This document shows, one piece after another, positions 56,013 to 62,121 of a DNA stretch of 64,000 nucleotides. The DNA comes from Fabrea salina (lineage: Eukaryota > Ciliophora > Heterotrichea > Heterotrichida > Fabreidae). The notes beneath the pieces were generated by a model. The model ran no database searches. It saw nothing but the letters and a program-made list of their open reading frames with translations, and was not told the DNA's origin. Where the stretch lies: assembly GCA_022984795.1 (NCBI GenBank), contig JALIHJ010000034.1, forward strand, positions 124,001 through 188,000, in the 5' to 3' direction. The position numbers and the translations under genes were made by a program. Every line of letters begins with the position of its first letter. The stretch's first letter is position 1.

Positions 56013-58715
56013 TTAATTATCAGTCCTCCTTTTGGTTTTAATAGGAGACTTCTCAGGGCTTTCGCCTCCAAAGTAGTGATCTACAGATAAAAACTTCCTA
56101 AAGAGTTCAGAGTTCTTCACACTTGGAATGGCACTGAGGTCCATTAAGTACTGCTGGCAAGCTTTTCTCCTTTCGTCAAGGACCATTGGCCTGCGGGCAC
56201 TGAACAAAGACCCTGAGTTTTGACTGAACAAAGCCCCTCCTGAACTTGGCATTTCTATTTCAGGGAACTGCTCTTGTAGGTTTTCGTGTAGTTCACAGAA
56301 CAGTTTGTACCTCCTGGTTACTGTCCAGGTTTTGTTTTTGTGAGTAACTGTAATTGCGTACTCAGTGTAAGGTTTAGAGTCAGGAGTTTCCCGAACTATG
56401 GTTTGAGGCACCACTATACTGTACACTGCGTTGTCTTTGTTGATCTTTTCTAGTTCTTTTGTGCATATTGAAATGTGTGCAGAAAACACACTGCAACTAA
56501 TAACCTTGCCACAGAGTTTACACTGCAGAGCAGAAGAACTTTGCACCATTCTTTGGAAGCGTTTGAGTCTTTCTACTTTTTGGTCTAGTTGTTGGCACCT
56601 TTCTTCCATTTTTTCAAGTGCAAAAGACAAGTGCTTGGAAGTTTCTGAGGCTTCAGAAGAAGGCACGTGGCGTGCTTGGAGTGCAGAAACAAGTGACTCC
56701 TGTACACTTTTGTTGTCTTCAATTTGTGACTTTAGTGACTCTATTTGTGTTTTAAAAAAGTTCCTTTCAGAAGCCCAGTCTTCAGGTTCAGGACGGTTGC
56801 GACGAGTTTCGGAGGAGTCAAGTTCTTCTTGGGCTAGACGGAGCTGGGCTCTGATTTCTTTAAAGTCAGTTTCGAGTTCTTCCTTTTTAGACTTGAGTTC
56901 TTTAACTTCTTGACTGCGCCAACTAGCTTCTTGCTGAGCTAGAGCAAGTTGTTTTTCTAAGTTGCTGATTTCTGAGTTGTGTTTTTGGAGAAGTTCACTG
57001 TAAGAGTGTTGTAGTTCTTCGTATTTTTGTTTGTACTCGTTGTTTTTTTCTTTTTGTGAAGACTTAAGAGAGTTGAGTTTTTCTTTTTCAGCTTTGATTT
57101 CTTGGACTTTCATTTCAAGTGAAGTTTTTTCAGCTTTTAGTTGGTAGTTTTCAGACTCTAAGCTGCGGAGTCTTTGTTGGAAGTAGTCTTTTTCTTGGTG
57201 GAATTCTTCCTTTTTAGTGTCAAGTGCAGACTTTAAGAATTCTAGTTGTTGGGTTAGTTTTCGGTTTTGGTTATTTTGTTCCATTATGGTGCTTCTGTTG
57301 ATATAGTCAGCAGCTTCGCTTAGCAGTTCAGTAGCCATTTCTTTAATTTTGCTTTCTATCATTTCTGAGTGGGTTTGGTCCTTTCTTAGTTTTTTGCACT
57401 CTTCTTCAAAGTCTTTTTTGAACTGTTGGAAGTCAGAGTACTCTCCACTTCTGAGTTTCAGAGTCATTTCTCTTTGCAGTTCGTTGCAGATGTCTTCGCA
57501 CTTGTCTCCTAGTTTTTTGTCGTTTTTCTTTCTGATAAATTCAAACCTTTCGTTGATTAGTTTTATAAGTTTTTCTTCGTACTGCTGGGACTGGTCCCCA
57601 ATAGCTTTGTCTTTGAAGCTCTTAATGACTTTGCTTTTTAGTTGTTTGTGGATTGACTTTAGTTTAGAGGGACTCATTGGCTCTGAAGGAACTGACTCTA
57701 GAAGGAACTCTTGGTACTCTTTAGCAGTGACTTCTACTTGTTTCTGGCATTCAGCCTTGCAAACAGATTCCCAAGCCCCTTCAATCGTGGGCACTGCTCC
57801 TTTGTTAATGGCTTCTACGTAGGCTTGGGCTAGTTTGCCAAACATTTCTCCGTTTAAGCTTTGTCCGTTGAAAGACTTCACCCTTACTTTTTTAAACACG
57901 TTTTTATGCAGACTGTTGATTTGTCTGACAAACTCAGGTCTGAGTTGGGAGTCTTCAGCATGCTGAAGGTCCTGGAGAGCAGTTTCATTTTCAGTAGGTC
58001 GCACCATAACGAAACAGTCTCTTTCGCGGAAAAAGTGCTTGATGAGCTTTCTTACTCTGTTTTTGCTTTCCACAGAATCACTAACTCCTTTTTGGGGCTG
58101 GAGTGAGTTTTCTAAGTACTCTTTTGCAGAAATTTTGTTGCCAGAAGAATCAATGAGTTGCAGAGAAAAGTCTCTGATAACCCACAAGAAGCTAGGGAAG
58201 TACAGAGAAACCTCGTCTACGTCTAGTTCTGAGTCACTAGCTCTGACTTGCAGGTTTTTAGTCAAGTTAACAATCAAAGACATGTTGTTAAGGGCATTTT
58301 CGTCAATGCTGCCTAAAGAGTTGTAGATGAAGTAAGAACTAAGTAAAACAGACAACATGAAAATCCGAGTGTCGTGGTTAGCGTCTTCGTCTATTGCTCC
58401 AAGGCCTTCTGAGTCTATGATTAAGCAACTGGCTTCTTCGCCGTCACCAGTTCTGACTTCAATCGGTTTACTCCAAATCCACAAGCCTTTCGTGCAAGCG
58501 TTGATGGTAGGTCCTACTCCAAAGCCCTTATCCTTAGAGTCCAACAGCACCCTATTGAGCAGGTAGCTTTTGCCTGTTCTGTACTTGCCAGCTACAGCTA
58601 CTACTGCTACCTTTTTAGTGACACTGTTGAGGAACTCAAGGGCTTCTTCAGTTACTTTGAAGCCCTCTCTTTCTTTGTAAACGATGAAAGGAATAGCTCT
58701 TTCTGTGCTCTCCAT
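56013..58715 (-). CDS. GBP-like GTPase fused to zinc finger and PX domain
   Basis: A 900-residue protein. A GB1-type GTPase domain comes first: P-loop GKYRTGKS (43-50), DSEGLGAIDEDANHD and LWVIRDF. A GBP helical domain to about 480 and a coiled coil to about 725 follow. Next is a C2HC-like zinc finger (CKLCGKV then HISIC, about 732-751) and a C-terminal PX domain at about 765-885 with TEYAITV, the lipid-contact RRYKLFCELH, a Pro-rich loop and RRKACQQYLMDL. PX domains usually bind PI3P on endosomes. It is a paralogue of the giant GBP gene at 13362-18323. Confidence 0.85.
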   Translation of the reverse strand: MESTERAIPFIVYKEREGFKVTEEALEFLNSVTKKVAVVAVAGKYRTGKSYLLNRVLLDSKDKGFGVGPTINACTKGLWIWSKPIEVRTGDGEEASCLIIDSEGLGAIDEDANHDTRIFMLSVLLSSYFIYNSLGSIDENALNNMSLIVNLTKNLQVRASDSELDVDEVSLYFPSFLWVIRDFSLQLIDSSGNKISAKEYLENSLQPQKGVSDSVESKNRVRKLIKHFFRERDCFVMVRPTENETALQDLQHAEDSQLRPEFVRQINSLHKNVFKKVRVKSFNGQSLNGEMFGKLAQAYVEAINKGAVPTIEGAWESVCKAECQKQVEVTAKEYQEFLLESVPSEPMSPSKLKSIHKQLKSKVIKSFKDKAIGDQSQQYEEKLIKLINERFEFIRKKNDKKLGDKCEDICNELQREMTLKLRSGEYSDFQQFKKDFEEECKKLRKDQTHSEMIESKIKEMATELLSEAADYINRSTIMEQNNQNRKLTQQLEFLKSALDTKKEEFHQEKDYFQQRLRSLESENYQLKAEKTSLEMKVQEIKAEKEKLNSLKSSQKEKNNEYKQKYEELQHSYSELLQKHNSEISNLEKQLALAQQEASWRSQEVKELKSKKEELETDFKEIRAQLRLAQEELDSSETRRNRPEPEDWASERNFFKTQIESLKSQIEDNKSVQESLVSALQARHVPSSEASETSKHLSFALEKMEERCQQLDQKVERLKRFQRMVQSSSALQCKLCGKVISCSVFSAHISICTKELEKINKDNAVYSIVVPQTIVRETPDSKPYTEYAITVTHKNKTWTVTRRYKLFCELHENLQEQFPEIEMPSSGGALFSQNSGSLFSARRPMVLDERRKACQQYLMDLSAIPSVKNSELFRKFLSVDHYFGGESPEKSPIKTKRRTDN

Positions 58716-58766: not shown

Positions 58767-59636
58767 ATGGACTTGCTTTCAGAGTTAATCAGCAAAAAAA
58801 AGAGAGAAAGAACTGGACAACTCTGGTTCAAACCTAGTCAAGTCCAAGAAACTCCAGAAACTCCTGTTAAAAAACCAAAGTTTTCTGTTTGCAAGCCTCC
58901 TCCTCAAACTGAGCAGTTGACCAAAGAAGAAGTAGTTTTTCGCCTAAGAAAGCTTAAACAGCCTGCAATCTACTTTGGAGAAGACTTAGAAGACCAAGCA
59001 AAACGACTCAGAAAAACAGAAGAAATGATACTTGAACAGGGAGCAGGGTTCCTTAAGAACAAAGAAGAGTCACTGGAGTCTTTAGAAAAGTCTTTAGAGG
59101 GAGACCTTTGTTTGTACGAGTCCAGTGAGTACATTTCAGAGGCTTTGCAAATAGAAGAATTCGAAGACCAAGGAAAAGTCTGGAAAAAAGGCAAGTGGGA
59201 ACACCCATTTGTCACTGAAAGCAAAACTTACTCCTACTCCCAAAAAACACTCATAGTTCTGACTTGGTGCAAAAAGACACTTGAAAACTGGGACGGTAAA
59301 ACCTAGCTAGGAAACAGCAAACTCTTAGAAGAATGCAGAAGTTACTTAGTTAAACTGTTCAAAGCTTTAAAAGCCCAGGCAGTAGCCCAAGAAGCCCTAG
59401 AGTACTTGTTTGTTATAACTAGATTCTGCCAAATTAAAAGTTACGTTAAAGCCCACAATTACTACTTAAAGCTAGCCTCAGGAAATATTCCCTGGGCCAA
59501 GACTCCTCACAGTAACTCTTACTCAGAACTAGTATCTGAAGCCCTTACTCGCAAGTACACTCAAAACCTCAAGCGCCTCATAACAGTCGCCCAACGTACA
59601 TTCCCCAACTTGCCTTCGAAAACAGTTATAGCATAA
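58767..59636 (+). CDS. PRPF18: Pre-mRNA splicing factor PRP18, loop-deleted
   Basis: Exons 58767-59295 and 59311-59636 join across a 15-base intron to give 284 residues (human 342). The N-terminus is MDLLSELISKKKRER, the PRP4-like motif is LRKLKQPAIYFGED, and the C-terminal helical domain has SYVKAHNYYLKLASGNIPW and RKYTQNLKRLITVAQRTFP. PRP18 acts with SLU7 in exon ligation. Between GNIPW and RKYTQ there are 18 residues, against 32 in human; the highly conserved loop region (PIGVTMVGIHARTGREKI in human) is missing. Confidence 0.9.
59296..59310 (+). other. 15-base intron in PRP18
   Basis: Sequence gtaaaacctagctag, phase 1 within a Gly codon, with A at position 10. It contains two TAG triplets. 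Confidence 0.92.
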
Positions 59637-59640
59637 TTAA

Positions 59641-62121
59641 ATGGAACATAGCATGTCGCAAATTGAAGACTTCAGTGACTTCTCTGAAAACGGAGAACTG
59701 GAAAACCAACTAAGGCAAAAAGTCAAGTCCCAGGCAAAGCGGCTTCGCTCCTTAGAAAACTACTCAGCTTTATGCGAACAAAGAATTCAAGAACTAAGCC
59801 CGCAACACTCCTTCCCAGTTAAGCAACAGCACTTAGGAACAGGTTCTTCTCTAGAAACTGAGCTTCAAAAAGCCAGACAAGAAATTCAAAAACTACGCAA
59901 ACTACACAAAAGCTCAGGAGAAGACAAACTCAGTGCTGAACTTGAAGAGGCCAAACAAGACAAACTCGACCTTGAAGAAAGCCTAAGAGCCGAAATGCTT
60001 ATGAACGAACAACAAAGTATCTACATCCAAGTCCTCAAGCAAACCTTAGAAGCCAAAATGGACAATTTAGGATTGTCAGGGAACCCAGCGGACCACTTTG
60101 TGGACTTTATTCAGTCAAGAAACCAACTCGAAGGAAGCAAAAGACTCAGTAACAAACTTAAATCACAAGAAGCTTACATAGAAGAACTTACGCAAAAGAT
60201 TAAGTCTTTACACAGCGAAAACGAAGAACTCAAAAAGGAAAAAGAAGAAAACGAAACTTACATGAAAGAAGCTGCTGAAACTATTGAAAACGCCGAAGAA
60301 GAAGTCCAAAAACTAGAACAGGAAAAAGAAAACTTACTGGAATACGTAGACCAACACGACCAAATGGAAACTTCTCTTAAAGAAGAACTCAAACAAACCA
60401 GTCAGAAACTTGAGTCCACCCAAATTAGCTTGAAGGTGCTTAAAGACAAACACTCTTGTTGTGAAGCCACTATTCAAAACCTACAAAACCAAGTAAAATC
60501 CCAAGACAGTCAAATAAACGAACTCCAAAACGCCTACGAAGAAACTGAAGTTAAACTTGAACAAAAAAACAACACAGTCATCCAGCTAGAAGAAGACATT
60601 TCACAACTAAGCGCTAAAACCCAAAACACACACTTCAACCATGCTGCACTCTCAGAAACTCTTAAAGAAACCCAAACAGAACTTGAAAACTTACAACTGA
60701 AAACAGAAGAACTCACTAAAGAACTCGAAACTTACAAAGAAAAGTGCCAAGCAAAACAAGACGTAATCCAAAAACTCCAACAAGAAAAGGAAAACACCCT
60801 GTCTGTGTTTGCTCTTAAAGAACAAAACAAACAAGAAACAGAACTCTCTAAGAAGTTAGTTGAACTCACCAAAGAAAGAGACGAACTCAAAGACTGCTTA
60901 ACTAAAAAAGAAGAAGAACTAGCTCAAGTGTCCCAAAACAATGACAGCTTACTCAATGAACTCAATAAACTCCAGTCTAGCTTTTTCTCAGACCAAGTAC
61001 TTAACGACGAAAACTCAGAACTCAGAAAGCAAGTACAAGAACTAAACAAAACTATCAGCGAAAAAACCTGTGAAGAATGCCAACAACTAAAAGAAGAAGC
61101 CCAACTGCTTAAAGACAAGTACGAACAAGAACGCACTGAAAAGTTTGAATACTCTGATAAAATCAAAGCTGTTTACTCTAAACTAGAAGACTACAAAGCT
61201 TCAACTAAAAACTTAACTGAGTTCAAACAAAACTCAAGACACGAGATTTTTAGTTTGAAACACTTAGTTTTAGAGTACTTAGAACACGAAGAACTCCAAA
61301 GCTTCAAAAGTTACTTTTTTAAATACACCAAAAAAGAAGACATTCACTTAGAAGACTTGCACACATTCATCAAAACAGTTGCTGAAAACCTCATTCCTCT
61401 CTTAACTAAAATTCAGTCACTAAAAAAACAAACAACTCAGAACCAAACACAAAAAGAAAACTTAGAAACCCAACTAAAAGAAACCATTGAGCAACTCCAA
61501 AACACCCAAGCAAAAAACAAAAAGCTCACTCAAGAAGTAAAAAGCTTTTCTGAAGACTTAGAACACTCCAAACAAACAAATAACCAAAAAGTTTTAGCTC
61601 TACAGAAGCAAATAACTTCACTCAGAGAACAAGTACAGAAACTCAACGAAGAAAACTTAGAACTCTCTGAAAAGCTAAAAGCTACAAACAACCAAACTCT
61701 TAAGTGGAAGTACACTGCTCAAACAGACACCTTTACTATAAAGTCTTTAGAGGCCCGCTTAAACTTAGTTGCTAAAGAAAAGCACGAACTCGAAAACTTA
61801 CTAACTAGAGTGCAGAGTTTCGTTTACCACTCTAACATCCAAAAACTTATATTTGAGTTTTTAAGAGTTAGAGGCGACTTAGAACTCTTTGAAAGAGAAA
61901 AGTTAAGGATTCAAAACCAACAAATGCGGTTCAGTGACACTTCGAGTGAAGAGTACTTGCAGCTTGAAGAGCAACTTGAACAGTGTGAGTATCAAATTGA
62001 ACTTGTACAGAGCAAAATGGAAGCTTTGGATGACGAAATCCAAGAAATTGAAGAAACTGAACGCAAAAGAACTTATGAGTACTATGCTGAAAAAAAGCCT
62101 CCCTCCGAAAACGTTAGTTAA
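59641..62121 (+). CDS. Long coiled-coil protein
   Basis: An 826-residue protein. After a short acidic start (MEHSMSQIEDFSDFSENGEL) it is almost entirely heptad coiled coil, with possible breaks at about 145-165 (LGLSGNPADHFVDF) and about 535-580 (a small Leu/Phe-rich helical patch, YLEHEELQSFKSYFFKY). This layout is common in centrosomal, basal-body and golgin proteins, but no orthologue can be named. It starts 4 bases after the PRP18 stop and ends 9 bases from the convergent RING gene. Confidence 0.7.
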   Translation: MEHSMSQIEDFSDFSENGELENQLRQKVKSQAKRLRSLENYSALCEQRIQELSPQHSFPVKQQHLGTGSSLETELQKARQEIQKLRKLHKSSGEDKLSAELEEAKQDKLDLEESLRAEMLMNEQQSIYIQVLKQTLEAKMDNLGLSGNPADHFVDFIQSRNQLEGSKRLSNKLKSQEAYIEELTQKIKSLHSENEELKKEKEENETYMKEAAETIENAEEEVQKLEQEKENLLEYVDQHDQMETSLKEELKQTSQKLESTQISLKVLKDKHSCCEATIQNLQNQVKSQDSQINELQNAYEETEVKLEQKNNTVIQLEEDISQLSAKTQNTHFNHAALSETLKETQTELENLQLKTEELTKELETYKEKCQAKQDVIQKLQQEKENTLSVFALKEQNKQETELSKKLVELTKERDELKDCLTKKEEELAQVSQNNDSLLNELNKLQSSFFSDQVLNDENSELRKQVQELNKTISEKTCEECQQLKEEAQLLKDKYEQERTEKFEYSDKIKAVYSKLEDYKASTKNLTEFKQNSRHEIFSLKHLVLEYLEHEELQSFKSYFFKYTKKEDIHLEDLHTFIKTVAENLIPLLTKIQSLKKQTTQNQTQKENLETQLKETIEQLQNTQAKNKKLTQEVKSFSEDLEHSKQTNNQKVLALQKQITSLREQVQKLNEENLELSEKLKATNNQTLKWKYTAQTDTFTIKSLEARLNLVAKEKHELENLLTRVQSFVYHSNIQKLIFEFLRVRGDLELFEREKLRIQNQQMRFSDTSSEEYLQLEEQLEQCEYQIELVQSKMEALDDEIQEIEETERKRTYEYYAEKKPPSENVS

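What the first reader, a model, noticed from the sequence alone, without database searches (positions are those of the whole stretch)
58767..59636. PRP18 lacks its conserved splice-site loop in a genome with 15-base introns
Seen: between the matching blocks GNIPW and RKYTQ there are 18 residues, where human PRPF18 has 32; the block equivalent to human PIGVTMVGIHARTGREKI is absent. Known: in yeast this loop (the PRP18 conserved region) reaches the spliceosome centre and aids exon ligation and 3' splice-site choice, and PRP18/SLU7 become dispensable when the branch point is close to the 3' splice site. Inference: with the presumed branch A only five bases from the intron end, the loop may have become unnecessary or sterically unwelcome. 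This would be co-evolution of spliceosome and intron size.
Basis: partly seen in the sequence, partly recalled or inferred. Interest (0 to 1): 0.78.

Follow-up and report, generated by a model that had tools for sequence, protein, structure and literature searches.

The report
Splicing factor missing its measuring loop
A single-celled organism whose genes are cut by 15-letter introns carries a splicing protein, PRP18, that lacks the loop which in yeast reaches toward the end of the intron and is thought to set a minimum distance there, suggesting that machine and intron size changed together.

Summary
The gene at 58767-59636 is PRP18 (Prp18 domain E 2.6e-18, SFM/PRP4 motif E 2.4e-7), the only copy found. 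Only 54 bases lie between GNIPW and RKYTQ, so at most 18 residues fit where human has 32 (recalled sequence). Missing is yeast P194-I211, 18 of the 25 residues of the conserved region. The stretch also contains GTAACTCTTACTCAG, which fits the genome's 15-base intron motif (620 matches against 33 for the reversed control); if spliced, 13 residues remain. Partners are kept: PRP8 is 485/556 identical to human over the relevant segment and retains Q1594, P1984 and L1988; SLU7 is present but ends early. The presumed branch A lies 5 bases from the intron end, below the 7-base minimum reported for yeast without Prp18. Best reading: PRP18 still docks on PRP8 with SLU7, but its 3'-splice-site ruler was lost because fixed tiny introns leave no room or need for it. 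The decisive comparison, PRP18 of ciliates with ordinary introns, could not be made here; inherited loss unrelated to intron size is the main rival.

The parts
58767..59295 (+). PRP18 exon 1 (N-terminal part, SFM/PRP4 motif, start of the helical domain)
   Evidence: open frame; splices to exon 2; Pfam PF08799 and PF02840
58941..59015 (+). SFM/PRP4-like motif, residues 59-83
   Evidence: PF08799 E 2.4e-7; PDB 2dk4, named Pre-mRNA-splicing factor 18, E 0.028
59296..59310 (+). 15-base intron 1, GTAAAACCTAGCTAG, in-frame stop, presumed branch A at position 10
59311..59511 (+). PRP18 exon 2 up to the probable second intron
   Evidence: PF02840
59481..59495 (+). GNIPW block: retained first part of the yeast conserved region, includes the residue equivalent to yeast N190 that contacts Prp8
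   Evidence: contact from a PMC10711555 passage
59496..59549 (+). Site of the missing loop: 54 bases, at most 18 residues, where human has 32
59512..59526 (+). Probable second 15-base intron GTAACTCTTACTCAG, in frame, no stop
   Evidence: motif GTAANNNNTACTNAG: 620 genome matches vs 33 reversed control; 10 matches in 228 kb, reversed control 0; profile score leans slightly the other way (66.9 bits unspliced, 65.0 spliced)
59527..59636 (+). PRP18 last exon: helix 5 region (RKYTQNLKRLITVAQ) and C-terminus

Best explanation
This is the genome's single PRP18, a second-step splicing factor, in a natural form that resembles the yeast prp18 conserved-region deletion. Shown: the helical domain and SFM motif are kept, the 3'-splice-site loop is gone, the introns that this spliceosome removes are 15 bases with the presumed branch A 5 bases from the end, PRP8 keeps the residue that reads the -3 pyrimidine and the two residues that touch Prp18, and SLU7 is kept in shortened form. 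[quoted passage not shown] With the branch A only 5 bases from the splice site the loop would occupy the place of the branch region itself, and its tasks (imposing a minimum distance, choosing among several AG) disappear when only one AG is in reach. Selection to keep it ended, or favoured its removal; the 3' splice site is recognised by PRP8 and by pairing with the intron start and branch A.
For: Prp18 domain over cut-off with a 14-position gap; gap placed exactly on the conserved region; single copy, no loop found elsewhere. Intron motif 620 vs 33. -3 base in the first 100 of 620 listed matches: T 76, C 19, A 4, G 1, so pyrimidine-AG is kept without the loop, matching conserved PRP8 Q1594. 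PRP8 segment 485/556 identical to human, with P1984 and L1988 kept; PRP18 keeps the N190 equivalent. SLU7 E 4.2e-49 to PDB 5xjc SLU7, EIE element (yeast 215-217) read as ELS by hand from the alignment. Literature passages: loop near -3/-4, ruler role, shortest distance 7 in prp18-null yeast, dispensability at short distance (PMC10711555); [quoted passage not shown] First-step parallel: Cwc25 here begins MGLAFLNKKSWH where human is MGGGDLNLKKSWH (recalled); the same glycine-motif loss is reported for Stentor and read as clash avoidance (PMC9505925).
Against: No ciliate with longer introns was compared, so the link to intron size rests on one species. The loop could have been lost earlier for another reason. 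PRP8 shows no compensating change. In yeast the loop deletion is harmful: growth fails above 34 C and one non-consensus site was used even more than in the null (PMC10711555 passages). Human PRPF18 keeps the loop although human C* and P complexes lack PRPF18 (PMC10711555 Discussion), so loop conservation is not simply explained by constant use at the 3' splice site. PRP18 Q181, another Prp8 contact, reads N here (D in human). The branch A is presumed from position, not mapped. No expression data. The structure model was too weak to use (mean pLDDT 62.5; no PDB match at E <= 0.001).
Confidence: 0.55

Rival explanations
1. Inherited loss unrelated to intron size: the loop was lost in an ancestor (all ciliates or a larger group) and tiny introns came later or independently.
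For: No ciliate with ordinary introns could be examined. PRP18 is named among splicing factors of Paramecium bursaria (PMC12862383 passages) but the passages do not describe its loop. BLAST failed to find PRP18 in Stentor (PMC9505925 Table 1), which says nothing direct about the loop.
Against: The loop is present at about full length in the three other PRP18 compared: human (recalled), yeast and the chain in PDB 9if7, so ancestral presence is likely. No direct test within ciliates.
Confidence: 0.27
2. General protein shrinkage in a streamlined genome removed the loop as dispensable sequence.
For: PRP18 is 284 or 279 aa against 342 in human (recalled); SLU7 is 284 aa and its match ends at residue 380 of the 586-residue chain of 5xjc. 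Stentor spliceosomal proteins are described as slightly reduced in size (PMC9505925 abstract).
Against: Shrinkage should spare the most conserved block first, yet exactly that block is gone (human-yeast 13/18 identical there, 25/80 columns elsewhere). PRP8 is not shortened in the segment compared.
Confidence: 0.1
3. PRP18 is decaying or reused for another task, and exon ligation proceeds without it, as in Cyanidioschyzon merolae, reported to lack both Prp18 and Slu7.
For: The loop is the part described as reaching the active site; C. merolae lacks both proteins (PMC10711555 Discussion).
Against: Intact frames, intact N-terminal motif, kept GN..W and helix 5 region, SLU7 kept.
Confidence: 0.05
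4. Artefact: misassembly, missed exon or sequencing error hides the loop.
For: No reads or transcripts were examined.
Against: A clean in-frame loss of at least 42 bases with both flanks conserved; only 54 bases between the flanks; no loop found elsewhere in the assembly.
Confidence: 0.03

Closest known systems
PRP18 / PRPF18 (Pfam PF02840; yeast Prp18)
   Same: Prp18 helical domain, N-terminal SFM/PRP4 motif, GN..W block, helix 5 region with KR; one copy found, with one SLU7 gene on another contig.
   Different: Lacks 18 of the 25 residues of the conserved region; linker of 18 or 13 residues instead of 32.
Yeast laboratory allele prp18-deltaCRt (S187-I211 deleted; PMC10711555 passage)
   Same: The same loop is removed (the allele also removes 187-193); the allele still binds Slu7.
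   Different: Natural rather than engineered; works on introns with a 5-base branch-to-end distance; pyrimidine-AG appears to be kept, whereas the yeast allele loses 3'-splice-site fidelity and grows poorly above 34 C.
Tiny-intron spliceosome of Stentor coeruleus (PMC9505925)
   Same: 15-base introns with branch A at position 10; Cwc25 glycine plug lost; Isy1 N-terminus diverged (here against a recalled human sequence); clash avoidance proposed there.
   Different: That paper's Table 1 lists PRP18 and SLU7 as not found; here both are found.
Reduced spliceosome of Cyanidioschyzon merolae (as cited in PMC10711555)
   Same: Prp18/Slu7 function reduced.
   Different: There both proteins are reported absent; here the loop and the C-terminal part of SLU7 are missing.

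Membership tests
PRP18 (PF02840) | Prp18 domain profile over curated cut-off | tested here: met
   66.9 bits (cut-off 32.5) with one intron removed, 65.0 bits with two
PRP18 (PF02840) | N-terminal SFM/PRP4-like motif | tested here: met
   PF08799 30.6 bits, cut-off 25
PRP18 (PF02840) | Conserved-region loop between helices 4 and 5 (a hallmark; the curated family definition is the profile score) | tested here: not met
   Yeast P194-I211 missing, 187-193 kept. Hence filed as an orthologue that lacks the loop, not as a canonical PRP18
PRP18 (PF02840) | Prp8-contact residues (yeast Prp18 N190, Q181; Prp8 P1984, L1988) | tested here: inconclusive
   3 of 4 kept: Prp18 N190, Prp8 P1984 and L1988 (positions mapped through the ranges with one assumed gap); Q181 reads N by hand (D in human)
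PRP18 (PF02840) | Slu7-binding helix 2 residues (yeast R151 R152) | tested here: inconclusive
   K and A in this protein, R and K in human, by hand
PRP18 (PF02840) | Acts in exon ligation in the spliceosome | not testable with these tools
   needs biochemistry
SLU7 (PF11708) | Slu7 profile and zinc knuckle CX2CX4HX4C | tested here: met
   E 5.2e-42, 3.1e-42 over profile 2-200 of 253; CTNCGAMTHKVKDC present
SLU7 (PF11708) | End of the Slu7 profile and the part beyond residue 380 of the 586-residue human chain | tested here: not met
   frame ends at LEDKYGKQSDHEDLL; no 15- or 16-base GTR..AG candidate in the gene; a 17-base GT..AG over the stop meets another stop eight codons on (read). Yeast SLU7 has 382 residues, so the loss is large against human, smaller against yeast
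Heterotrich ciliate tiny introns | 15-base GT-AG introns with A at position 10 | tested here: met
   motif 620 vs 33; 10 of 15 frame-rescue candidates of length 15 have A at position 10; counts by length alone show no peak at 15
Fabrea salina (source organism) | macronuclear genome of about 18 Mb | tested here: inconclusive
   assembly 18,328,466 bp in 103 contigs; the published size is recalled and the genome paper is not held

The most novel reading that the evidence does not exclude
Tiny-intron spliceosomes are natural loop-deleted (prp18-deltaCR-like) machines: removal of the PRP18 ruler loop is what permitted the branch point to sit 5 bases from the 3' splice site, together with trimming of SLU7's C-terminal part and of the Cwc25 plug, so that the lower limit of intron length is set by a few protein loops.
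Probability: 0.3. Interest if true: 0.82.

Novelty: new variant of a known kind. Interest (0 to 1): 0.62.

Why it matters
How the spliceosome handles introns as short as 15 bases is an open question. A PRP18 that keeps its domain and partners but lacks its ruler loop is a natural experiment that separates scaffold from ruler. It gives a direct test: put the loop state or the intron geometry into yeast and read the minimum branch-to-3'-splice-site distance. It may also explain why BLAST did not find PRP18 in Stentor (PMC9505925): the most recognisable part may be missing there too. In nine literature searches no listed title or abstract start describes a PRP18 without this loop; several lists were capped (20 of 60, 20 of 51, 20 of 21, 20 of 94, 15 of 155), the library lacks most subscription journals, and the Fabrea genome paper is not held.

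Tried and rejected
Restoring the loop by another frame or a local exon: 54 bases only, nothing in six readings. Second gene: none found. Matching change in PRP8: looked for and not found, 485/556 identical to human. Relaxed 3' splice site: not seen, 95 of the first 100 listed motif matches are YAG, but the motif was itself chosen from intron candidates and only the first 100 of 620 were listed. Deciding intron 2 by profile score: 66.9 bits unspliced against 65.0 spliced does not decide and leans slightly against splicing. Census of introns by frame rescue in 228 kb: 15 candidates at length 15, no peak over other lengths (8: 13, 10: 17, 16: 18, 31: 29); 10 of the 15 have A at position 10, 5 do not. 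The case for 15-base introns therefore rests on the motif search and on the published heterotrich introns. FAM192A/Fyv6 and FAM32A gave no match, but no control genome rang, so absence is not shown. Structure model (single sequence, both introns read through, TAG as Q) and fold search were uninformative. Relatives in bacterial/archaeal genome contigs and viral contigs: none confirmed. phmmer of the whole protein against PDB found only 2dk4 at E 0.028, and exon 2 alone found no PRP18 up to E 10.

Full report
What is there. The gene runs from ATG at 58767 to TAA ending at 59636. Exon 1 (58767-59295) and the following exon are joined by a 15-base intron, GTAAAACCTAGCTAG (59296-59310), which carries an in-frame stop; the product is 284 residues. 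Pfam names it clearly: Prp18 domain, 66.9 bits against a cut-off of 32.5, and the N-terminal PRP4/SFM motif, 30.6 against 25. The search of the whole assembly (18,328,466 bases, 103 contigs) with the Prp18 family finds this gene only; a search with a loop-bearing, human-like query also finds only this place. Both searches score only the best first-look candidates.

The missing loop. The alignment puts the gap directly after the invariant tryptophan. In yeast numbering, residues 187-193 of the conserved region are kept and 194-211 are missing. This is the best conserved part: human and yeast agree at 13 of 18 positions there and at 25 of 80 columns in the rest of the stretch compared. No frame of the intervening DNA resembles the loop.

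A second intron inside the scar. The stretch contains GTAACTCTTACTCAG (59512-59526). In 228 kb (window plus 17 loci) there are 15 frame-rescue candidates of length 15; 10 of them have A at position 10 and several agree closely with GTAA....TACTTAG, 5 do not; by count alone length 15 does not stand out from other lengths. The pattern GTAANNNNTACTNAG occurs 620 times in the genome, its reversed control 33 times. In the 228 kb there are 10 matches and no control match; in the best of three phases each of the 10 lies between frames open for at least 24 codons on both sides; 6 of 10 contain an in-frame stop, 4 of 10, this one included, do not. So this 15-mer is probably an intron, and the real linker is AKTPHKLVSEALT, 13 residues, in a protein of 279. 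The profile score does not decide (65.0 bits against 66.9). Either way the loop is absent.

The partners. PRP8 is found once in one open frame of 2297 codons. Over the segment equal to human 1478-2032 it is 485 of 556 identical to human. Mapped through the match ranges with one assumed gap, it keeps yeast Q1594, said to read the -3 pyrimidine, and P1984 and L1988, which touch Prp18 N190 and Q181 (passages of PMC10711555). PRP18 keeps the asparagine equal to N190; Q181 reads N. SLU7 is found once (E 5.2e-42; PDB 5xjc SLU7 E 4.2e-49). Its zinc knuckle is present and its Prp18-binding EIE element reads ELS by hand alignment, but the match ends at residue 380 of the 586-residue chain and the frame stops there, with no 15- or 16-base intron candidate to pass the stop; yeast SLU7 is itself only 382 residues. 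U2 snRNA is found with the branch-binding GTAGTA intact. Cwc25 starts MGLAFLNKKSWH where human has a glycine plug (recalled). Isy1 is present with a diverged N-terminus (human recalled). A Saf4/Yju2 family gene is found. FAM192A/Fyv6 and FAM32A were not found, without a working control.

How it most likely works. [quoted passage not shown] the protein is described as a ruler for the minimum branch-to-splice-site distance; prp18-null cells use sites down to 7 bases; Prp18 and Slu7 are dispensable when the distance is short (PMC10711555, passages and Discussion). In the Ci intermediate the loop is disordered while the helical domain is already bound (PMC8022279 passages). Counted the same way, the presumed branch A here is 5 bases from the intron end. 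Bases -4 and -3 are then the second and third base after the branch A: the loop would have to share the place of the branch region. I infer that PRP18 here keeps the scaffold task and has given up the ruler task. The 3' splice site remains pyrimidine-AG: T 76, C 19, A 4, G 1 in the first 100 of 620 motif matches, in agreement with the conserved PRP8 glutamine. In yeast, by contrast, deleting the loop lowers fidelity and stops growth above 34 C; fixed geometry may be what makes the loss harmless here.

What is and is not known. For Stentor, PMC9505925 (abstract, sections 2.1, 2.4 and 2.6, first of two parts of figures and tables) reports 15- and 16-base introns with branch A mostly at position 10 or 11, loss of the Cwc25 plug and a diverged Isy1, and proposes clash avoidance for first-step factors; its Table 1 lists PRP18 and SLU7 as not found. 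Blepharisma also has mostly 15 and 16 bp introns (PMC9942806 passage). The present case extends the pattern to the second step. It is one species only.

Weak points. No ciliate with ordinary introns could be compared, so the cause is not shown. PRP8 has no matching change. No transcript, no branch mapping. The AlphaFold model was made from a single sequence with both introns read through (mean pLDDT 62.5) and found no PDB match at E <= 0.001, so it adds nothing.

Noticed in passing
window 56013-58715 (-): Neighbouring gene encodes a guanylate-binding-protein GTPase (GBP E 8.1e-67, GBP_C E 2.7e-20) joined to a C-terminal PX domain (E 1.3e-13), with a C2H2-like stretch between them seen by eye (CKLC...H...C); an unusual-looking fusion.
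   Followed up: partly
window 59641-62121 (+): Long, apparently coiled-coil protein of 826 aa directly downstream of PRP18; only sub-threshold Pfam matches (Rab11-FIP3 E 1.3e-4, AIP3 E 0.0047).
   Followed up: partly
L005 967-1821: SLU7 here stops at the equivalent of residue 380 of the 586-residue human chain; the published Stentor table lists SLU7 as not found.
   Followed up: partly
L025 (G000:C21:209371-210081, minus strand): Second Saf4/Yju2 match (E 8.7e-17) has seven in-frame stops (1 TGA, 4 TAG, 2 TAA) within about 700 bases: either a gene rich in tiny introns or a decayed copy.
   Followed up: no
L021 (minus strand): Cwc25 begins MGLAFLNKKSWH: the glycine-rich plug of human CWC25 (recalled) is lost, as reported for Stentor.
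   Followed up: partly
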